From: Schleiferiaceae bacterium
GTDB lineage: Bacteria > Bacteroidota > Bacteroidia > Flavobacteriales > Schleiferiaceae
Direction of reading: 5' to 3'
Length of the DNA: 64,000 nucleotides
Assembly: GCA_028357285.1 (NCBI GenBank)
Contig: JAOMWM010000001.1
Span: 186,001-250,000 of the forward strand
Below the pieces are notes generated by a model. That model was not told where the DNA came from. It worked only from the letters and a program-made list of their open reading frames with translations, and did not search any database. The translations under genes and the position numbers were made by a program. This document shows, one piece after another, positions 40,161 through 48,600 of the stretch; within the stretch, counting starts at the first letter, position 1, and each line of letters opens with the position of its first letter.

Positions 40161-40163
40161 AAG

Positions 40164-40237
40164 TGGAGAAGATGGGATTCGAACCCACGACCTCTTGACT
40201 GCCAGTCAAACGCTCTAGCCAACTGAGCTACATCCCC
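40164..40237 (-). tRNA. tRNA-Ala(GGC)
   Basis: 74-base minus-strand cloverleaf: acceptor GGGGATG, D-arm with AGCTCAGTTGGC, anticodon loop CTGGCAG closed by TTTGA/TCAAG (anticodon GGC), and T-arm with GGGTTCGAATCCC. The acceptor stem has G3:U70, the identity element for alanyl-tRNA synthetase, and a U6:U67 mismatch. The CCA end is not encoded. It marks the left edge of the accessory island, which lies on its 5' side. Confidence 0.9.
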
Positions 40238-40246
40238 AACGAGGCG

Positions 40247-40254
40247 CAAATATA
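40247..40254 (-). promoter_or_regulatory. Putative -7 element for tRNA-Ala
   Basis: TATATTTG on the minus strand matches TAnnTTTG, ending 9 bases before the tRNA 5' end, a normal distance for a short tRNA leader. Confidence 0.5.
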
Positions 40255-40323
40255 GGTTAAGAGAAGGAGATTATTATCTAACTACATCCTACTATTCTTA
40301 TATTAGGTTTCAAATTATACCTA

Positions 40324-40662
40324 ATGAATAAGCGACTTCTATTAGCAACCTTTCTATTCCTGTTAGGGTTGGGGCTTAATGCCCAAACTGTATATTCTGT
40401 TAAGTATGAATCACAGGCAGATGTTAAGGTCTATGTGGTAGAGTATGAGTCCCAAGCCGACCTACTGGTCTTCAAAGAGGACTATTCGTCTCGTGCTAAG
40501 GGGAACGAAGGGAATTGGTTTTTCGTGGATTACCAATCACAGGCAGATAAGAGTATCTACTTTGTCAAATACGAATCACAAGCCGACTTAAAAATCTACT
40601 TTGTTGAATACGAGTCAAGAACGGGTTGGCGGAATAAGGAGAAAGTTCATTTAATGTATTAA
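40324..40662 (+). CDS. DUF6150-type repeat protein, exported
   Basis: 112 residues with signal peptide MNKRLLLATFLFLLGLGLNAQ. The mature part is built of about six imperfect 12-16-residue repeats of the form V-Y-x-V-x-Y-E-S-Q-A-D-x-K (for example VEYESQADLLVF, VKYESQADLKIYF), matching what I know as DUF6150. The repeats probably form stacked strands. Function unknown. It is the only plus-strand gene of the island, and its stop lies 8 bases from the recombinase-tail repeat A. A divergent relative, gene 45133-45534, closes the island on the other side. Confidence 0.7.
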   Translation: MNKRLLLATFLFLLGLGLNAQTVYSVKYESQADVKVYVVEYESQADLLVFKEDYSSRAKGNEGNWFFVDYQSQADKSIYFVKYESQADLKIYFVEYESRTGWRNKEKVHLMY

Positions 40663-40669
40663 TTCAGAA

Positions 40670-40712
40670 TTAGGGCAAGTCCTCAACATCCCGCTTGCTT
40701 ACTTCAAGGCTC
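40670..40712 (-). repeat. Recombinase-tail repeat A (shortest copy)
   Basis: On the minus strand reads L-I-T-S-L-E-V-S-K-R-D-V-E-D-L-P-stop, aligning with the last codons of repeats B-E (GLKVEQLDVEDLPEL-stop). The catalytic Tyr and His are absent. It has lost the final E-L. Confidence 0.65.
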
Positions 40713-40728
40713 GTAATTAAGAAAGATA

Positions 40729-40857
40729 TTAGAATATGAGGTTTCCTAGTATTAAACCAAGTATTGATGAAATAAAACCCCAAAAGAGCTTTTCAGTCAT
40801 AGTCGCATCATCTTTCCAGCGCAATGCGTAATCTTTAAATGGGAATCTAAATTTCAT
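40729..40857 (-). CDS. 42-residue predicted membrane microprotein
   Basis: Reading frame starting at the ATG at 40857: MKFRFPFKDYALRWKDDA then a hydrophobic helix (KLFWGFISSILGLILGNLIF, about residues 23-42) ending at the stop 40729-40731. It starts seven bases after the stop of the upstream paralogue gene (40865-41353). The junction (stop, CACACCT, ATGAAA) is almost the same as between genes 43354-43842 and 42852-43346, where a full-length paralogue follows. This shared junction and the good helix support it being expressed; no relative is known to me. Confidence 0.5.
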   Translation of the reverse strand: MKFRFPFKDYALRWKDDATMTEKLFWGFISSILGLILGNLIF

Positions 40858-40864
40858 AGGTGTG

Positions 40865-41353
40865 TTACTGATTAGAAGCCTTGATAGCTTCATTCAACTT
40901 ATCTGCAACTTTGTAGAATTCCTTATCTCTTTTTCTGAGACACCCTTCTGGTGATGAAGCAATCCTTGAAAATGCTTTATACGAGACTGCACAAAGGCCT
41001 GCTCCTATCGCCCCGCTGCCTATTGCGTCAAACAGTACTCTCTCTACAAGCCCTATATACATACCCGTACCAACTAATACCACACCTCCGACGGAACCAG
41101 CCCAAGCACCACCTACAAAATTCAAGGTGTTATTACCAAGACGTAGGTTATTATTCTTGTGCATACGGATTAATCTATTCCCTCTGCGAAAATTCCACCT
41201 TCCAGCTTTATTTAGTAGGGTTAAAACACCAATCTGTTCCATTGACAATTCTTCTCCATTCTGAGTGAAGGTTCCATTATCGTATTCAATAAGGTCTTGG
41301 CTGAAAGCAGCGATTGATATCAGTACTGCTGCAATTGTAGTAAGGAGTTTCAT
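40865..41353 (-). CDS. Island paralogue 1: exported protein with conserved ends and variable core
   Basis: 162 residues. The signal peptide MKLLTTIAAVLISIAAFSQ is shared, almost base for base, with genes 42207, 42852 and 43354. Compared with gene 43354-43842 the first ~60 residues (NGTFTQNGEELSMEQIGV, LLNKAGRWNFRRGNR) and the last ~45 (SYKAFSRIASSPEGCLRK, VADKLNEAIKAS) are nearly the same, but the middle (about 70-110), which holds one or two hydrophobic stretches, differs. It is probably a periplasmic or membrane-bound protein; no named family is recognised. Second gene of a cargo block with 41372-41914 upstream, ended by repeat A. Confidence 0.65.
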   Translation of the reverse strand: MKLLTTIAAVLISIAAFSQDLIEYDNGTFTQNGEELSMEQIGVLTLLNKAGRWNFRRGNRLIRMHKNNNLRLGNNTLNFVGGAWAGSVGGVVLVGTGMYIGLVERVLFDAIGSGAIGAGLCAVSYKAFSRIASSPEGCLRKRDKEFYKVADKLNEAIKASNQ

Positions 41354-41371
41354 TGGTGTATTAGTTTAGGA

Positions 41372-41914
41372 CTAAGTGTACAAAGGGCGTCGGCTAGATC
41401 GTTGGATCGATTTAAAAGCAAACACCGCAAAAGCAAGTAAATCCTCATCAATATGTGAACCGTGATAATCTATTTGAATTTTAGGTTTTGATATAAAACC
41501 TCCTCGCACCGTGATTGAAAATATAGTTTCATTATCCGTTGTGCGAATAAGGTTATAATATTCAACATTCCCTGGACGATTTGACAAAATTTCAGGTTCT
41601 TTTAAGTAATACGAATCTATAGAATTAACGGGATTGTATACATATCCACCCCAAAACCAGGGAGGTACAATAACGCTATTGATGACGTTTTTCGGTATAC
41701 CCCAATTCCAGTTGATTTCACCACATAAACGTTCATCTTTAATAAGGTTGGACTTGGTGCCAAACAGGTCCAATAGTTCCATCATCCCTTTTTTATCATC
41801 ATACTCGTAACTAATCGCATCACGATACCATTTAACGTGATTAGCTCTAAGTATTGCTGTATCGCCATTAAGTATTCTAAACCCTGTGGTATAGTTCTCA
41901 ATTCGTAAAATCAT
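41372..41914 (-). CDS. Unrecognised soluble protein in island cassette
   Basis: 180 residues without signal peptide or membrane helix, starting MILRIENYTTGFRILNGDT. It is rich in aromatic residues and charged beta-strand-like segments (AISYEYDDKKGMMELLDLF, VIVPPWFWGGYVYNP, ETIFSITVRGGFISKP) and ends with a basic helix FAFKSIQRSSRRPLYT. I recognise no family. It lies 18 bases upstream of island paralogue 1 and downstream of repeat B; unlike the paralogues, it is predicted to stay in the cytoplasm. The lack of nearby relatives suggests an independent origin as cassette cargo. Confidence 0.55.
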   Translation of the reverse strand: MILRIENYTTGFRILNGDTAILRANHVKWYRDAISYEYDDKKGMMELLDLFGTKSNLIKDERLCGEINWNWGIPKNVINSVIVPPWFWGGYVYNPVNSIDSYYLKEPEILSNRPGNVEYYNLIRTTDNETIFSITVRGGFISKPKIQIDYHGSHIDEDLLAFAVFAFKSIQRSSRRPLYT

Positions 41915-41983
41915 TGAATAAGTCTATTATATCTAAAGAGGTGCATTGATTTCTACCTACTCGTAAGATGACCATTGCTTAAA

Positions 41984-42192
41984 ACCTCCGTCATAAGATA
42001 TAATCTCTGGTACCGACACTTTTGCAGTTGTAGCCCTTAAAAATTAACTCATCTCCGATTATACGTTTCGTTTCTGAGAAATATTCACAACTCTGGCAAG
42101 TCCTCAACATCCAACTGCTCCACTTTTAATCCTCGCAGGTAGGTGAGTGATACTTTCATATCGCTATGTCCCATTACCTGCTGTAGCTTGAG
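41984..42192 (-). repeat. Recombinase-tail repeat B, with 3' extension
   Basis: The tail (42085-42192) reads L-K-L-Q-Q-V-M-G-H-S-D-M-K-V-S, then LTYLRGLKVEQLDVEDLPEL and a stop: the last 35 codons of a tyrosine recombinase with the box-II His (GHS) and nucleophile Tyr (LTYLRG). An in-frame stop lies just upstream, so no longer protein can be made. About 100 bases after the tail stop (41984-42085) align with the same region in repeat D. Confidence 0.85.
41991..42110 (-). CDS. Possible 39-residue frame overlapping repeat B
   Basis: ATG at 42110 lies inside the recombinase tail but in another frame; the frame runs past the tail stop to 41991: MLRTCQSCEYFSETKR then IIGDELIFKGYNCKS. It has a CxxC pair and a third Cys, like a small zinc-binding protein. 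The start (M-L/R-R-T-C-Q-S-C/Y-E) is kept in repeats C and E but the frame stops early there and in D. It may be the relic of a gene that followed the recombinase. Weak call. Confidence 0.25.
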   Translation of the reverse strand: MLRTCQSCEYFSETKRIIGDELIFKGYNCKSVGTRDYIL

Positions 42193-42206
42193 TAGTTATA
42201 TCGGTT

Positions 42207-42713
42207 TTAATATCCGAGCAGTTTGTATTTAGCTTCTATCTTTTTATTCAACTTCTCTACTAATTTCTCACATAGTTTGTCAACTTTTTTTTGACACCTG
42301 TCCTTTGTAGAATGGACATAAGCCAAATGAGGAAAATAAGCAGTCGCTGATGCGAGACCAACTGTTATAACTCCAAACCCTACTGCACCTACCATATCCC
42401 CGCTGTCTGCAGAGATAAGAGAAAGAAGTCCAAATAATCCAGTTCCAAGAGCCGCAACAGGAGTTTCTATGATAGATAGCGATAGCATACCAACACGCCT
42501 AAATTTATTTTCGCAATTTCTTATTTGTTTTTTTACTCCATTCAAACGCACTTGGTAGAATGGAACTTGGTATTGATTCATTAAACCTTCCACTTTGTCT
42601 AAAGAAATTTCTTTTCCATATCTAAAGAAAACACCTTCATTGTAATCAACATAGTCTTGGCTAAAAGCAAAGATTGATATCAATACTGCTGCAATTGTAG
42701 TTAGTAGTTTCAT
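42207..42713 (-). CDS. Island paralogue 2: exported protein, divergent core
   Basis: 168 residues with the shared signal peptide MKLLTTIAAVLISIFAFSQ and the shared first mature residues (DYVDYNEGVFFRYGKE). The rest differs from the other paralogues: a helical stretch (MNQYQVPFYQVRLNGVKKQ), two hydrophobic segments (about residues 75-100 and 108-130, LGTGLFGLLSLISADSG, VGAVGFGVITVGLASATAYF) and a basic, Cys-containing C-terminal helix (CQKKVDKLCEKLVEKLNKK). Its stop lies 15 bases before repeat B. Unknown function; probably membrane-associated in the envelope. Confidence 0.62.
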   Translation of the reverse strand: MKLLTTIAAVLISIFAFSQDYVDYNEGVFFRYGKEISLDKVEGLMNQYQVPFYQVRLNGVKKQIRNCENKFRRVGMLSLSIIETPVAALGTGLFGLLSLISADSGDMVGAVGFGVITVGLASATAYFPHLAYVHSTKDRCQKKVDKLCEKLVEKLNKKIEAKYKLLGY

Positions 42714-42774
42714 AGGTGTATCGGTTTGTATTAAAAATATAAAATCCCTAATAAATCATTGTTTCATTCTGGCT

Positions 42775-42880
42775 TCATAACTCTGGCAAGTCCTCCGCAT
42801 CCAATTGTTTCGCTTCTAATCCTCTCAAGTAAGTAAGGGACGCTTTGAGAGCTATTGACCCATCACCTTCTGAAGCTTCT
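42775..42880 (-). repeat. Recombinase-tail repeat C (with internal deletion)
   Basis: Reads K-L-Q-K-V-M-G-Q then, after a small deletion and frameshift that removes the GHSDM box, K-A-S-L-T-Y-L-R-G-L-E-A-K-Q-L-D-A-E-D-L-P-E-L-stop. The catalytic Tyr is kept, the box-II His is lost. Its first part also forms the C-terminus of gene 42852-43346. Confidence 0.8.
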
Positions 42881-43346
42881 TAATTCCTTGCTGATTAATA
42901 GCCTCATTTAATTTATCCGCTACCTTTTGAAATTGCTTGTCGGCTCGTTTAATAAATTTTTCATTACTTAAAAACGACCTTGACATTATCACCCCCCCAG
43001 CAACAACAAAAGAACTACCTGTCAATACTGTTGAAAATTGGTCAGGAGCCGATGCAGGACCAGATTCACTAGCTATAAGCACTATTAAAGGACCAAACAA
43101 TACTACAGAAGCGCCACCTAAAAATAGAGGGACTCTTGAAACAGGATATTTCACTGTATTAAAAGATGCAATACCGTTACTTAAATTTTGTCCTCCAGTG
43201 CGATATTGTCTCGTTAGTCTTTTCATATCCCTCATTTCAATTGTTTCTTCATTAAGAAAAAAAGACTGATTTTCATATTTAATATAGCTCTGACTGAAAG
43301 CAGAGATTGATATCAGTACGGCTGCAATTGTAGTAAGTAGTTTCAT
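42852..43346 (-). CDS. Island paralogue 3, ending inside repeat C
   Basis: 164 residues from the ATG at 43346 (MKLLTTIAAVLISISAFSQ); the longer frame to 43382 would overlap the gene upstream. The N-terminus (SYIKYENQSFFLNEE) and the helix KRADKQFQKVADKLNEAI are shared with paralogues 1 and 4; the centre is unlike them, with two hydrophobic segments (about 75-95, 105-125). The last residues IKKLQKVMGQ come from the recombinase-tail repeat C and align with LKLQQVMGH of repeat B, so the present stop codon arose inside the relic. Seven bases follow the stop of paralogue 4 to this ATG. Confidence 0.65.
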   Translation of the reverse strand: MKLLTTIAAVLISISAFSQSYIKYENQSFFLNEETIEMRDMKRLTRQYRTGGQNLSNGIASFNTVKYPVSRVPLFLGGASVVLFGPLIVLIASESGPASAPDQFSTVLTGSSFVVAGGVIMSRSFLSNEKFIKRADKQFQKVADKLNEAINQQGIKKLQKVMGQ

Positions 43347-43353
43347 AGGTGTA

Positions 43354-43842
43354 TTACTGCTTAGAAGCCTTGATAGCTTCATTCAACTTATCTGCAACTT
43401 TGGAGAATTCCTTATCTCTTTTTCTGAGACATCCTTCTGGTGATAAAGCAATCCTTGAAAATGCTTTGTAAGAGACTACGCTAAGACCTGCTCCTGGAGC
43501 TGCGTAGCCGAATGCTTCTAAGTTTACCTTTTCAAACCACCAGACATAATACCCAGATACCAAAACCAAAAAACCTCCGGATAAACCAGTTGCACTACCT
43601 ACCACGAAGCTCCCAGTGTTGTTCGCAATACGGTAGTTTTGATTCTTATGGAAACGGATAAATCTATTCCCTCTGCGAAAATTCCCCCTTCCAGCTTTAT
43701 TTAGTAGGGTTAAAACACCAATCTGTTCCATTGACAATTCTTCTCCATTCTGAGTGAAGGTTCCATTCTCGTATTTTATGTAGTCTTGACTGAAACCAGA
43801 GACTGATATCAGTACTGCTGCAATGGTAGTAAGTAGTTTCAT
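43354..43842 (-). CDS. Island paralogue 4: exported protein, sister of paralogue 1
   Basis: 162 residues from the ATG at 43842 (MKLLTTIAAVLISVSGFSQ). Very similar to gene 40865-41353 in the first ~60 residues (YENGTFTQNGEELSMEQIGV) and the last ~45 (SYKAFSRIALSPEGCLRK, KVADKLNEAIKASKQ), but with a different centre (GSATGLSGGFLVLVSGYY, WWFEKVNLEAFGYAAPG). The conserved DNA extends over the stop and the first bases of what follows. First gene of a two-gene cargo block between repeats D and C. No family recognised; an envelope location is inferred from the signal peptide. Confidence 0.65.
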   Translation of the reverse strand: MKLLTTIAAVLISVSGFSQDYIKYENGTFTQNGEELSMEQIGVLTLLNKAGRGNFRRGNRFIRFHKNQNYRIANNTGSFVVGSATGLSGGFLVLVSGYYVWWFEKVNLEAFGYAAPGAGLSVVSYKAFSRIALSPEGCLRKRDKEFSKVADKLNEAIKASKQ

Positions 43843-43885
43843 AGGTATAAGCGATTTTGTGTAGTAGGAAGGTAACAATTTGTAA

Positions 43886-44098
43886 TTCCTCCGTCATAAG
43901 ATATAATCTCACGTACAGACACATTTACTCTTGTATCCCTATAAGGTTAACTCAATTCCGCTTATAAGTTTCATTGCTGGGAAATATTTACAACTCTGGC
44001 GAATCCTCAACATCCAACTGCTTCAATTCTAATCCCTTTAAATAGGTAAGTGATACTTTCATGTAGCTCTTACCCGTTACCAGTTGTAGAGAGCTTAC
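43886..44098 (-). repeat. Recombinase-tail repeat D, with 3' extension
   Basis: The tail (43988-44090) reads L-Q-L-V-T-G-K-S-Y-M-K-V-S-L-T-Y-L-K-G then LELKQLDVEDSPEL and a stop. The Tyr is kept, the box-II His is replaced by Lys. The 100 bases after the stop (43886-43988) align with the extension of repeat B, both ending at the segment CCTCCGTCATAAGATATAAT. The stretch from 44099 to 44197 holds nothing I can recognise. Confidence 0.82.
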
Positions 44099-44197
44099 AG
44101 ATCCTGTTTGTTAGCAACTAATAGTTGCTCAAAATACATGGAGATATGAATAACAGCCTTGGTTTTAAACTGATTACATAGTCGGTGTTTCATCCAT

Positions 44198-44224
44198 AAA
44201 AAAGCCCCTTCCGAAGAAGAGGCT
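44198..44224 (-). terminator. Rho-independent terminator after the 44297-44920 gene
   Basis: Nine-pair stem (44203-44224) closed on the minus strand by the stable C(TTCG)G tetraloop and followed by six T. It lies 73 bases after the barrel-like gene. Confidence 0.85.
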
Positions 44225-44296
44225 CTATAATCTAAAGTCGTTTGTATTTACTTATTTCCAGTGAATGAAAATGTAAAAGTTTTATTCAGCAGTTAT

Positions 44297-44920
44297 TTAA
44301 AACCCCCACCCAGCGGTCAACTGAAGGTTAGGGTACCAACCACCTGAGTTTGCTATCTGAAAATCAAGTGCTCTTGAGTTAGCGTCCATGGTTAGCCCAT
44401 TTGTATACACTACGCCCCCTCCGCTTTTAATAAGACCAATATCAACTCCTAGACGAACGCCTTTGACAGGACGAAGTCCATAACCGAAACCGGTGAAAGT
44501 GAATACTCCGCCGTCATGCCAATGATAGCTATTTCCATCAGGGTCATCAAAACGCGCATTTAAAGACTGAACTCCAATACCGGCAACAACTCTAATTGCC
44601 TGCAATGTCTCTATAGGACGATAACTAATGTTTACTCCTGACCAACTACTTGCATCCCCAAAAGTACCAGTATAGGTAACACCGTTTATATCAACACCGT
44701 TATCAATTGGGACTTGTTCACCATAGTGAACAGAAACTGTGGTTTTCTTTGAAAGCTGGTGGTCAAATTGAAACCCAACCGATTGATAAGGACCACCGGT
44801 ATTAATACTAAATGAATTCTTGGCGTATGCCCTGTCTTTTTTCCAAAAGGAAAAGTTGTCTTGAGCCGAAGCTGCCGTGCAAAACGCAAAGGCCATGCAA
44901 GTGATAAATAGTTTTTTCAT
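44297..44920 (-). CDS. Predicted outer-membrane barrel-like protein (island cargo)
   Basis: 207 residues with the signal peptide MKKLFITCMAFAFCTAASAQ. The mature part alternates short strands typical of small outer-membrane barrels (SFSINTGGPYQSVGFQFDH, KTTVSVHYGEQ, SGVNISYRPI, IRVVAGIGVQSLNARF, VFTFTGFGYGLRP, GVRLGVDIGLI) and ends in NLQLTAGWGF with the terminal Phe usual for barrel insertion. No named family. It differs from the paralogue family in signal sequence and fold. It has its own terminator and lies between repeats E and D. Confidence 0.62.
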   Translation of the reverse strand: MKKLFITCMAFAFCTAASAQDNFSFWKKDRAYAKNSFSINTGGPYQSVGFQFDHQLSKKTTVSVHYGEQVPIDNGVDINGVTYTGTFGDASSWSGVNISYRPIETLQAIRVVAGIGVQSLNARFDDPDGNSYHWHDGGVFTFTGFGYGLRPVKGVRLGVDIGLIKSGGGVVYTNGLTMDANSRALDFQIANSGGWYPNLQLTAGWGF

Positions 44921-45012
44921 AATAATTATTAGTTAATTAGTCCATTTGGTTATGAAATTATCTAATCGGAATTTAATGAATCTACAGTAGTTTCTTGTTT
45001 CATTTTGCCCAT

Positions 45013-45094
45013 TCACAACTCTGGCAAGTCCTCAACATCCAACTGCTCCACTTTTAATCCTCGCAGGTAGGTAAGGCATACTTTCATATCGCTG
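45013..45094 (-). repeat. Recombinase-tail repeat E
   Basis: Reads S-D-M-K-V-C then LTYLRGLKVEQLDVEDLPEL and a stop, with the Tyr kept. Over about 75 bases it differs from repeat B at only about four positions, so these two copies are the most alike. It is truncated before the GHS box and lies right of the barrel gene. Confidence 0.85.
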
Positions 45095-45132
45095 GCAAAT
45101 CCTTTCAAAATATGTGTAATGCGGTCTTCTAT

Positions 45133-45534
45133 TTAATCCGATTTTAAAGAGAGCGTATCCGTTTCTTGGTCGCGTCTTTTTCTTTTTCGCCGTTTATTTA
45201 ATTTAGTTTTATAAAGCGCATTGGTATTAATTTTTGACTCGTCGTCCGTAAAGAAAACTTTGATATCTGCGAAGGCAGCTTTATCCACTATGTAAATATT
45301 CATCCAATCATCATTCCTTTCTAAACGTTGTTCGGTAAGACTCCAATAGCCGTTCATGTTTTGTGCATGGTGTGCAGATTTCGCTCGGCAAACAATGACA
45401 TCTGCGTTCCATTCAAAAGATGTAAAAAAGACGGTAAAATCTGCGTCCCACTCGCCTTCTACCACATTTATTATTTGGGCGCTGACACTGGATTGGAAAG
45501 TGATTAGCAGCGCAAGTATCCTCAGCTTATTCAT
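45133..45534 (-). CDS. DUF6150-like exported protein
   Basis: 133 residues with the signal peptide MNKLRILALLITFQSSVSAQ. The mature part repeats a strand pattern related to that of gene 40324-40662: EGEWDADFTVFF, EWNADVIVCRA, MNIYIVDKAAFADIKVFF, with an AD-x-x-V core. The middle AHHAQNMNGYWSLTE resembles the GNWFFVDYQ segment of the other gene. The C-terminus is highly basic (KLNKRRKRKRR) and then acidic. Unknown function. It is the right-most cargo of the island, followed on the minus strand by repeat E, and diverges from the CotH-type gene. Confidence 0.62.
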   Translation of the reverse strand: MNKLRILALLITFQSSVSAQIINVVEGEWDADFTVFFTSFEWNADVIVCRAKSAHHAQNMNGYWSLTEQRLERNDDWMNIYIVDKAAFADIKVFFTDDESKINTNALYKTKLNKRRKRKRRDQETDTLSLKSD

Positions 45535-45657
45535 TTGGCTTGGTTTTTTTCTAAGATAATTAATGCCGACTAATCTCTAATACCACTTAATTACCTACTC
45601 AAGAAACACAAAACTGCCATAAACGACTTAACTTCGTGGCGGATAGTTAACTGAATA

Positions 45658-48600
45658 TTGAAGACGTCAATAAAACAAATCTTGGCCCTTGGGCTCATTT
45701 TCTATGCCGCCACTTCCCATGGGCAGCTTGCGGTAAATGAATTTGCTAGCAAGCGCGGTTTTACCGACGAAAATGGGGATGATGTGGATTGGATTGAGGT
45801 ATTCAACTACTCCAGTGATTCAGTGTTTCTCGCGGATTATTTTCTCAGCGATAACCCGGATAACCTCGATAAATGGCAATTTCCAAACACCTATCTAGGC
45901 AGCCAAGAGCTTATTACGATATGTGCATCGGGTAGGGAAGATGCAAAATTTCCCAACCATTGGGAGGCGCTGGTTTTAGCTGACGAAATTTGGAAGTATT
46001 GGAACGGATCGAGCCCCCCTACCAACTACAATGATTGGAACCAATTGGGCTTTAACGATCAGAGTTGGAATTCAGGACAAGGAGGAATTGGTTACGGGGA
46101 TAATGACGATAATACTACCATTGCCGCTACGCCTTCCATCCTCATGCGTAAAGAATTTCAGATCGTCGATATTCAAGACATAACGCACCTCTTGTTTCAT
46201 GCAGATTACGACGATGGGTTCATCGCCTATTTGAACGGAGTAGAAATCATGCGTTCGGATAATTTCGCTAGCGCCACTCCTGCTTATAATGAATTCACAG
46301 CCTACGATAAGGAGGCCGTGATGTATACCGGTGGAATTCCTGAAAGTGCATTTTTTGATACGGAATCGGTCCAGGATTTACTTCAATCGGGGACTAACGT
46401 TCTGGCCGTACGCGTTCACAACGCCAGTGCGAATTCCTCCGACATGAGCAGTAATTTCTATTTATCCGCCGGAATCGCATCTGCGAATTTCAGCTACCAA
46501 AGCCTACCCAGCTGGATACAAACGCCATTGATTTTACCCCATGCGGATTTCAAACTATCACACGGCGAAACCATTTGCATCAGCGATTCCAACGAAGCGC
46601 TAATGGACAGCGTTTACATCCCCTACGATATCTCTCGCTCCATAAGCAAGGGGCGCTTGCCTGACGGAACTGGGAATTGGTGCTACTTCAATGCCCCTTC
46701 TCCAAACCAGTCTAACAGTCAAAACACCTGTTATTCCGGAATCACCGAAACCCCAACACTTGATCTTGCCTCTGGATGGTATTCTTCAGCGCAACAGGTG
46801 ACTATTACTACGCCCAACAATACCACATCCTACTACACCACTAACGGTGATGTTCCAGATCAAAACGATACGGAGGTCAATGGCCCCATATACATTTATG
46901 GCACCAGCGTGTTGAGCGTACGAACGTTCAGTGATATTGGTCAAAAGCTACCCAGTGCAGTGGTTGACCGAACCTACATCATTGATGAAGACAATCATGG
47001 ACTTCCAGTGGTTTCCATTATAACTACGGAAAATCATTTGTGGGACTGGAATAGCGGGATCTATGTTATGGGTCCAAACGCAAGCGCTAACTACCCCTAT
47101 TTTGGAAGTAATTTTTGGGAGCCGTGGTCGAGAAAATCACGGATGGAATTCTTCGACAGCTCCAAAACGAAACAATTCGATGCCGTTTTCGATCTAGAAA
47201 TTCATGGCGGTTGGTCCAGAGCTGAACCGCAAAAGTCATTTCGTATAGATGCGAAATCGAAGTATACTGGGGATATCGAATATTCGTTGATTGAACGAAA
47301 ACCAGAAATTACAAGCTTCAATAATTTCAATCTAAGAAACGGTGGGCAGCACAGCCTGTTTGATCGCATTCAAGATGCCGTCATGAGCCGACTATCTGAA
47401 GGCACAAACATTGACCGTATGGGGTATCAAGCTTGCATCGTGTATCTAAACGGTGCTTATTGGGGCTTATATGGCATTCGTGAAAAGTTTGACGAGCACT
47501 ATGTAGAAAGTAATCATGGGGTTGATAAGGATGAAATCCAATTATTAAATCGAGAAGGCGCGCTTGTTGGTGACGCCAGCCACTTCTTAGAATCGCACCA
47601 AATCATTACCAGTATTAGCACATCTACGCCCAACTTCGTGGAGGTTCTGAGCGGTCGTTTTGATTTAGATAATTACATCGACTACTTCGTCTTTGAAACC
47701 TACATCCAAAACCGGGATTGGATGGGTATCGATTGGGAACTCAATAACATTAAACTTTGGCGACAAGATACGCTCGGTGCCACTTGGCGCTATATGATGT
47801 ACGATACTGACTTTGCATTCGGGCTCTACGGTGGGAACATCTATCAAAACTATATCGACAAAGCACGCAACCCGAGTTACCCCAACCAACATTCTCAAAT
47901 CTTCGATCACATCTTAGATAACGCGGATTTTAAGTGCCGATTCACGAACCGCTACAATGATCTCATCAACACGACGTTCCAGACGGGTCATTTTAATGCA
48001 GTAACGGACGAGCTGAAATCGGAATTGGCACCGGCCATACCAGATCATGTAGCAAATTGGAGTAATCAAATGGGCCCGTATTCCTATACCGATTGGCTGA
48101 ATGCAGTAAACGGTATAAAAAGCTACAACAGCGGACGGATCGCTACGGCACGTCAACATTTGAATCAAAGCCTCTCACTTCAAGGTCAACATACTGTGGA
48201 TTTGGATGCCTTCCCTATCGCTGCTGGTCACATCAAGCTCAATAGCATCGTGCCAGAATTGCCTTGGGACGGTGTATACCACGGTGCATGTCCTGTAACA
48301 GCTCAGGCAATTCCAAGCCGAGGTTTTCTGTTCTCACATTGGTACTCTACAGCAACGGCCTACAATAATGTATTGCAAGATTCCATAGAAGTTGCAGTTG
48401 CAGCGAATACGACATTAGTTGCGCATTTTGATACTTGTAAAAATGTGGTGGACGCTACGATTCAGCTGTCAGAAAAGATGCTCAAAGCTGCCGTCTCGAT
48501 TGCTGTGACGAATCCTTCTTACGTATGGTTTTACAATGGAACCCCGGTATCTACGGACAGTGTTATTTACAATCCGTTAGATGGAAATTACCAACTCACG

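What the first reader, a model, noticed from the sequence alone, without database searches (positions are those of the whole stretch)
41984..44098. Repeats B and D share about 100 extra bases downstream of the recombinase stop
Seen: the bases after the tail stop in B (41984-42085) and D (43886-43988) align along their whole length, both ending at CCTCCGTCATAAGATATAAT next to unrelated cargo sequence. C and E keep only the first ~20 bases of that flank (the GTTTCATT segment). A shared downstream flank marks a longer ancestral unit: recombinase end plus noncoding/att segment. The sharp common ends would be candidate crossover points.
Basis: seen in the sequence. Interest (0 to 1): 0.5.

Follow-up and report, generated by a model that had tools for sequence, protein, structure and literature searches.

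The report
Cassette array made of recombinase tails
In a group of Flavobacteria-like bacteria, small mobile genes appear to be strung behind copies of the last two dozen codons of a DNA recombinase gene, which seem to serve both as the enzyme's own end and as its cutting site, giving an integron-like gene-swapping system built without integron parts.

Summary
In detail: the bases after tails B and D match at 82 of 103 columns, far above chance. The repeats are recombinase 3' ends, and B and D share a longer ancestral unit. But the flank is the leader of a recurrent small secreted-protein gene, not an att site. In D it runs on into that gene; in B its sharp end is the edge of an insertion of about 590 bp.

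The likely recombination boundary is inside the tail, roughly 70 nt before the stop. Related Flavobacteriales carry an intact tyrosine recombinase followed by orphan tails separated by small cassettes. The same cassettes recur in different orders or behind different recombinases, usually with homology starting near -70, upstream of the catalytic-tyrosine codon. Closely similar recombinases differ most in this tail.

I infer an integron-like system whose site is the recombinase's own 3' end: each insertion replaces the last ~24 codons, tyrosine included, and keeps the gene whole. It fails two integron tests (IntI model, folded attC). Breakpoints are not one fixed point, and activity is untested.

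The parts
40672..45093 (-). whole tail/cassette array, read on the minus strand from E to A
40672..40717 (-). remnant tail A (end of the recombinase tail), array end next to the convergent 112-aa ORF 40324-40662; the same end is found in G198 (96.6%) and G145 (91.7%)
42085..42195 (-). tail B with stop codon; 94% of 36 residues identical to the C-terminus of the genome's own recombinase
42775..42861 (-). tail C with stop codon (71% of 28 residues; frame damaged further upstream)
43988..44110 (-). tail D with stop codon (70% of 40 residues)
45013..45093 (-). tail E with stop codon (88% of 26 residues); homology to the recombinase ends at the predicted crossover region
42159..42165 (-). approximate predicted crossover region in tail B, 72-78 nt before the stop (corresponding places: D about 44062-44068, E 45087-45093); inferred from the left edges and breakpoints of relatives, not measured here
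41984..42085 (-). leader behind tail B (the flank of the finding)
43843..43988 (-). leader behind tail D, continuous up to the MKLLTT ORF start near 43842
41364..41983 (-). extra stretch (about 590 bp net) between leader B and the 162-aa ORF; holds the 180-aa ORF 41372-41914
40865..41353 (-). cargo ORF, 162 aa, MKLLTT family (no Pfam, NCBIfam, PHROG or PADLOC hit)
42207..42713 (-). cargo ORF, 168 aa, MKLLTT family; homologous cassette directly behind the intact recombinase in L014
42852..43382 (-). cargo ORF, 176 aa, MKLLTT family
43354..43878 (-). cargo ORF, 174 aa as listed (probable start near 43842), MKLLTT family
44297..44920 (-). cargo ORF, 207 aa, signal-like N-terminus; the same cassette sits directly behind the recombinase in G145 (L062/L159)
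45133..45534 (-). ORF of 133 aa, DUF6150 (Pfam PF19647, 36.8 bits, cut-off 27); homologous right flank 45084-45974 in G304, so probably the edge of the locus
40163..40237 (-). tRNA-Ala(ggc) on the left flank of the array

Best explanation
The window holds a gene-cassette array without its own recombinase gene. The repeat unit is the last ~23-40 codons of a tyrosine recombinase, full copies of which lie about 164 kb away on the same contig and on another contig. In relatives the intact recombinase gene heads the array. Inferred mechanism: the enzyme recombines at a short core inside its own gene, about 69-78 nt before the stop and upstream of the codon for its catalytic tyrosine. A circular cassette carries its own copy of the tail and usually one cargo gene. 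Inserting it at the core joins the cassette's tail in frame to the body of the recombinase, which stays functional with a new C-terminus and new tyrosine, and pushes the old tail downstream behind the cargo. Repetition gives recombinase, cargo, orphan tail, cargo, orphan tail. Shown by sequence: intact recombinases with downstream arrays, mostly tail-only orphans, the same cassettes in different order and behind different recombinases, breakpoints concentrated near -70, tails exchanged between otherwise similar recombinases, and tails that diverged mainly at synonymous sites. Inferred only: circular intermediates, catalysis by this enzyme, exact strand-exchange bases. The B/D flank is the leader of one recurrent cassette type; its sharp end in B comes from a later insertion.
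For: Own genome: intact recombinase in L014 followed by cargo, orphan tail, cargo. Tail bias: around 86 recombinase records (80 after removing six duplicates) orphan copies of the last 45 residues lie near 32 (29), copies of any one other 45-residue segment near 2-6 (1-5). 35 of 39 orphan tails lie downstream; 21 of 55 named recombinases with at least 2 kb downstream have one. Left edges: 11 of 39 at 69-75 nt before the stop. Of 47 left breakpoints within -140 to +20 of a tail stop in both loci, 18 lie at -77 to -68. Order swaps: L176 has the FG-GAP cassette before the 119-aa one, L168 after it, 89-91% identical; two other cassettes (140 aa and ~125 aa) are in opposite order in L161 and L175. 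Junctions: of 11 pairs shown, 6 have at most 10/28 matches left of -72 and 54-67 of 72 right of it. Same cassette, different recombinase: L189/L201 body 0.66, tail 0.94, downstream 0.91. Tail exchange: in 17 of 18 pairs with body identity of at least 0.90 the tail is less identical, although in distant pairs it is on average the more conserved part; 16 of 17 and 10 of 10 disjoint pairs in the repeat. 25 orphan tails versus own recombinase: pS 0.417, pN 0.064. Tyr codon kept in 33 of 40. The locus without tails in G304: window 40249-40661 and 45084-45974 match L116 1-413 and 899-1789.
Against: No excised circle, strain-level before/after pair or experiment. Left edges are not one point: 28 of 39 fall outside 69-75 (range 31-178), 29 of 47 breakpoints fall outside -77 to -68, and in the window's genus several tails start near -108 to -118. 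Two of 11 junction pairs (Y2, HTH) keep homology left of -72 and three were out of register and unreadable. The rise in tail divergence is not a clean step: control windows just upstream (-123 to -24 relative to the Tyr codon) are also raised, 12-13 of 17, while farther ones give 2-9; the rate is also 0.10 at -90 to -60. L189/L201 still differ at -64, -58 and -55. 34 of 55 recombinases with at least 2 kb downstream show no orphan tail. Pieces other than the tail do occur near L196, L144, L186 and, as single segments, L013, L139, L154 and L162. Orphan tails were found by protein similarity, and 14 of 39 were dropped for low identity before the pN/pS count, both of which favour a low pN. Window tails C and D are damaged.
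Confidence: 0.8

Rival explanations
1. The tails are relics of whole elements (recombinase plus cargo) that inserted one behind another and later lost most of the recombinase gene by deletion.
For: Some orphans are longer than the tail: G198 9363 (71 residues), G293 (66-codon open frame), L013 5503-5656 upstream of an intact copy, and L158, L180, L183 with homology beyond 150 nt. L186 has a second, 254-codon open copy, and L196 a non-tail piece.
Against: Random decay should leave N-terminal and middle pieces as often as tails: after removing duplicates tails lie near 29 of 80 recombinases, any one other segment near 1-5, many of them from L186 and L144. Unrelated cassettes share the same left edge. 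Cassettes swap order.
Confidence: 0.1
2. Tails exist for some older reason and are now merely repeats through which ordinary homologous recombination duplicates, deletes and reorders the genes.
For: Orphan tails are mostly 69-110 nt of similar sequence. Multiplication of the MKLLTT genes in the window genus is plain. Breakpoints scatter.
Against: It does not explain why the repeat is always this recombinase's end, why the recombinase usually heads the array, why left edges and breakpoints pile up near -70 in different families, or how unrelated cargo acquires a tail.
Confidence: 0.08
3. One reading: the 100-base flank is part of an att segment and its far end is a crossover point.
For: The flank is shared by B and D and by tails in G304 and G198.
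Against: It is continuous with the cargo gene in D, G304 and G198; the sharp end in B is an insertion edge; C, E and the tails displayed from other families lack it.
Confidence: 0.02

Closest known systems
Integrons (IntI, attI, attC; including CALIN clusters without IntI)
   Same: Tyrosine recombinase at the head of a tandem array of mostly single-gene cassettes of unknown function; the same cassettes in different order in different genomes; clusters without a recombinase (definition from passages of PMC8618304).
   Different: Recombinase far below the integron-integrase model cut-off; the site is coding sequence that shows no stable single-strand fold; it is the recombinase's own 3' end rather than a separate attI and attC; outside the window genus cargo is mostly antisense to the recombinase.
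Myxophage Mx8 (attP inside int, integration makes a new 3' end of int)
   Same: att inside the coding sequence; recombination gives int a new 3' end without inactivating it (passage of PMC6070905).
   Different: One phage and chromosomal attB sites; no arrays of cassettes carrying spare 3' ends in the passages read.
Archaeal suicidal integrases (SSV1, pTN3, pT26-2 types)
   Same: Recombination site inside the integrase gene (passages of PMC8371274).
   Different: [quoted passage not shown] here the exchange would keep the gene whole.
tRNA-3'-end repeat islands and tycheposons (Methylophilaceae, Prochlorococcus)
   Same: An additive island marked by repeated short 3' ends of a target gene; tycheposons with a tyrosine recombinase (passages of PMC10872708).
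   Different: The repeated 3' end is that of a tRNA gene, not of the recombinase itself.

Membership tests
Integron | integron integrase IntI (TIGR02249 above its cut-off) | tested here: not met
   46.6, 46.1, 23.4 and 17.8 bits for L014, L013, L132 and L190 against a cut-off of 265 (four recombinases tested)
Integron | attC sites that fold as a single-strand hairpin | tested here: not met
   12 folds of 6 tails on both strands, z-scores -1.15 to 1.69 against shuffles; no attC covariance model was run
Integron | separate attI next to the integrase gene | tested here: inconclusive
   not searched for as such; the insertion position maps inside the 3' end of the recombinase gene instead
Integron | tandem array of cassettes that change order between genomes | tested here: met
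Tyrosine recombinase superfamily | catalytic domain with R, R-H, H and Tyr | tested here: met
   PF00589 57.4 bits against 27.1; R210, R305-H306, H328 and Y337 invariant in nine aligned recombinases; the roles of these residues are assigned from general knowledge
Recombinase with att site inside its own gene (Mx8, suicidal integrases) | crossover within the integrase coding sequence | tested here: met
   by comparison of sequences only
Archaeal suicidal integrase | integration splits the gene | tested here: not met
   open recombinase genes stand directly before cassettes
Functional site-specific cassette system | circular cassette intermediates and recombination in vivo | not testable with these tools
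   no reads or cells

The most novel reading that the evidence does not exclude
A second, independently evolved gene-cassette capture system, widespread in Flavobacteriales, in which every cassette carries the end of the recombinase gene with its catalytic tyrosine. The first cassette therefore completes the enzyme, and cassette traffic continually renews the enzyme's C-terminus and filters out cassettes whose tail would kill it.
Probability: 0.6. Interest if true: 0.92.

Novelty: new variant of a known kind. Interest (0 to 1): 0.8.

Why it matters
To my knowledge (recalled) integrons are the only well-known platform that stockpiles and reorders single-gene cassettes. A platform of different descent, with the site merged into the recombinase gene, would show that cassette capture evolved more than once. 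It could explain part of the variable islands of Flavobacteriales and would give a testable self-renewing enzyme design. It also offers a search signal (tail-only recombinase repeats) for pools of small secreted proteins and lipoproteins without known function.

Tried and rejected
Looked for the flank as an att site: rejected, see the D alignment with G198 and G304. Looked for attC-like folding of tails: none. Looked for a defence role of the seven window ORFs: no PADLOC hit; no Pfam hit above its cut-off except DUF6150; NCBIfam was run on five of the seven and gave no hit; PHROGs on all seven gave only two weak unknown families for the 168-aa ORF. Viral contigs: 5 loci with distant relatives, best segments 26-37% identical, not followed further. 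Solved structures at E up to 1e-5: one, a XerC-like recombinase, 4a8e, 53.5 bits. A relative of the inserted 180-aa ORF occurs in 2 of 295 other genomes of the order, one of them on the G248 contig with a tail array; how the insert arose stays open. A short inverted repeat (AGCGATA-TGAAAG-TATCGCT) seen by eye in some copies near the predicted core was not tested and is not in all lineages. The all-against-all breakpoint listing was cut in its middle; the left-breakpoint list used here was printed whole. Literature: ten searches; as far as the listed titles and abstract starts show, none describes cassette arrays on recombinase 3' ends. The library lacks most subscription papers and holds no bioRxiv preprints. 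Passages of PMC8138268 on tyrosine recombinase classes were seen but the recombinase was not placed in its scheme.

Full report
What was claimed and what is there. The bases after the stop of tails B and D align over their whole length, 82 of 103 columns, score 61.5 against at most 12.5 in 500 shuffles and 12.0 in 1855 random window pieces. C and E do not share this flank beyond a short segment. The repeats are, on the minus strand, the end of a tyrosine recombinase gene: B 94%, C 71%, D 70% and E 88% identical over 26-40 residues to the C-terminus of a recombinase encoded on contig C34 of the same genome. A fifth remnant, A, lies at 40672-40717. The genome has two recombinases of this family, at C1:61857-62906 (about 164 kb from the array) and on C34, and a third, different one.

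The flank is a leader, not an att segment. Behind D it runs without a break through 38 more nucleotides into the start of an ORF beginning MKLLTT. The same leader and start follow tails in G304 (L094, 83.3% over 819 columns) and G198 (L046, 90.6% over 278 columns). Behind B the leader stops sharply because about 590 bp with a 180-aa ORF (41372-41914) lie between it and the 162-aa MKLLTT ORF; G304 has about 39 nt there. So the sharp common end is real in B only, and is the edge of an insertion.

The array is one of many. In the genus 11 of 25 genomes match the tail; in the order 27 of 296 genomes match the recombinase. A scan of a collection of 84,980 species genomes gave 199 stretches encoding a relative, of which the best 80 were kept; 75 of the 80 record titles name Bacteroidota members and 5 name other groups (L135, L156, L180, L182, L199), perhaps wrong bins. 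Around 86 recombinase records the last 45 residues recur as orphans near 32 and any one other 45-residue segment near 2-6. Six of the 86 are the same sequence under two ids. Without them it is 29 of 80 against 1-5 of 80, and 27 if L186 (a second, 254-codon open copy) is set aside. The other segments come from L186, L144 and L196 and, as single segments, from L013, L139, L154 and L162. After dropping the duplicates, L159 and L186, 39 orphan tails remained, 35 downstream and 4 upstream of the recombinase. All displayed ones are on its strand; one weak hit elsewhere is opposite (L166). Of 55 named recombinases with at least 2 kb of downstream sequence, 21 have an orphan tail downstream and 34 do not. 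Large arrays are L161 (five orphans), L190 of Flavobacteria bacterium MS024-3C (four, or five with a weak one), L175 (three or four) and L046 of G198 (six tails, no intact recombinase in the fetched stretch).

Cassettes move. Cargo between tails is usually one gene. The longest ORF looks signal-bearing in 44 of 53 closed cassettes, against 175 of 433 control ORFs, by a crude rule. It is mostly antisense to the recombinase outside the window genus (31 of 38) and mostly sense within it (12 of 15). The same cargo families occur in different arrays at different positions. In L176 an FG-GAP cassette stands next to the recombinase and a 119-aa lipoprotein-like cassette second. In L168 the 119-aa cassette stands next to the recombinase and the FG-GAP cassette third. 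They are 91.2% identical over 1451 and 89.4% over 567 columns. A 140-aa and a ~125-aa cassette are likewise in opposite order in L161 and L175. In the window's genus the 207-aa cassette follows tail E in the window and the recombinase itself in G145 (89.2% over 1102 columns). The 168-aa cassette follows tail C in the window and the recombinase in L014 (85.6% over 807 columns).

Where they break. Eleven pairs of homologous cassettes were aligned at the tail stop without gaps. In six (X, Z, LP, FG, OMBB, C168) matches left of -72 are 3-10 of 28 and right of it 54-67 of 72. In two (Y2, HTH) homology runs further left. Three (Y1, W1, W2) were out of register and say nothing. Among 47 left breakpoints that fell within -140 to +20 of a tail stop in both loci, 18 lie at -77 to -68 and 29 do not; the pairs are not independent. 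Left edges of orphan tails peak at 69-75 nt (11 of 39) but range from 31 to 178, and in the window genus an edge near -108 to -118 is common. The Tyr codon lies 54 nt before the stop in the typical copy, so it travels with the cassette.

The tail moves separately from the recombinase body. In distant pairs of recombinases the tail is on average the more conserved part. Among 18 pairs with body identity of at least 0.90 it is the less identical in 17 (mean 0.94 body, 0.87 tail), and the 80 nt behind the stop are unrelated (0.24-0.40) in 16 of the 17 pairs with data. In the repeat (17 pairs, 22 recombinases) it is 16 of 17, and 10 of 10 disjoint pairs. Upstream windows give 2-9 of 17, but the two nearest the tail give 13 and 12. 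In 15 pairs the difference rate is 0.04-0.07 over most of the body (0.10 at -90 to -60), 0.07-0.12 at -30 to -12 and 0.13-0.15 beyond, relative to the Tyr codon. Conversely L189 and L201 have bodies 0.66 identical, tails 0.94 and downstream 0.91; their last body differences lie at -64, -58 and -55 from the stop, so here the switch looks nearer the Tyr codon than -70. Orphan tails differ from their neighbour recombinase mainly at synonymous sites (pS 0.417, pN 0.064; 25 of 39 tails, the other 14 being under 72% identity), which a decaying pseudogene would not be expected to show. Detection by protein similarity and the identity filter both push pN down. The Tyr codon is kept in 33 of 40 orphans.

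Reading. I take the tail as the recombination site and the C-terminal coding end at once. A cassette inserted at the core of the recombinase gene completes that gene with its own tail and displaces the old tail. Steps shown by comparison: anatomy, cassette order changes, concentration of breakpoints, exchanged tails. Steps inferred: circles, catalysis by this enzyme, exact core. The window array would be the counterpart of a cluster lacking its recombinase: E is cut at the predicted core, and left and right flanks match G304, where no tail was found between them (L116).

Relation to known systems. It works like an integron but is not one by the tests made: integron-integrase model at most 46.6 bits against a cut-off of 265 in four recombinases, no stable fold of six tails on either strand. 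An att site inside int with exchange of the 3' end is known from phage Mx8 (passage of PMC6070905). Archaeal suicidal integrases carry the site in the gene but are split by integration, and the review calls them exclusive to archaea (passages of PMC8371274). An island marked by repeated tRNA 3' ends is described in Methylophilaceae (passages of PMC10872708). By titles and abstract starts none of the ten paper listings described the present combination; the library is incomplete. GInts (passages of PMC5385486) are defined by a four-gene operon and do not fit.

Noticed in passing
L132, L167, L182, L195 (cassettes); L013 1462-1896; L116 380-920 (G304:C152): A small lipoprotein-like family with an IEGKW motif is cassette cargo in four arrays; a similar ORF lies about 5 kb from the L013 recombinase, and the G304 locus without tails seems, by my own reading of the printed sequence only, to hold a member.
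   Followed up: partly
L130, L132, L139, L168, L172, L184 (left edges of orphan tails): CAAATATA, the complement of a TATATTTG box, precedes the left edge in 7 of 40 tails against a chance rate of 0.003; antisense cargo starts a few bases away in several, so the box may be its promoter (inference).
   Followed up: partly
window 40324-40662: 112-aa protein with repeated YESQAD units next to the array end; 10 of 25 genus genomes have a match at E 1e-5, some weak, and the DUF6150 ORF at the other end of the array is itself weakly similar (29%).
   Followed up: partly
window 41372-41914: 180-aa ORF without family hit, inserted between leader B and its gene; a distant relative lies on the G248 contig that carries a tail array.
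   Followed up: partly
G145:C88, G170:C40, G219:C1, G034:C25, G100:C99, G273:C34: These contigs start within about 120 bp of one end of the match to this recombinase gene, as if assemblies break at these arrays.
   Followed up: no
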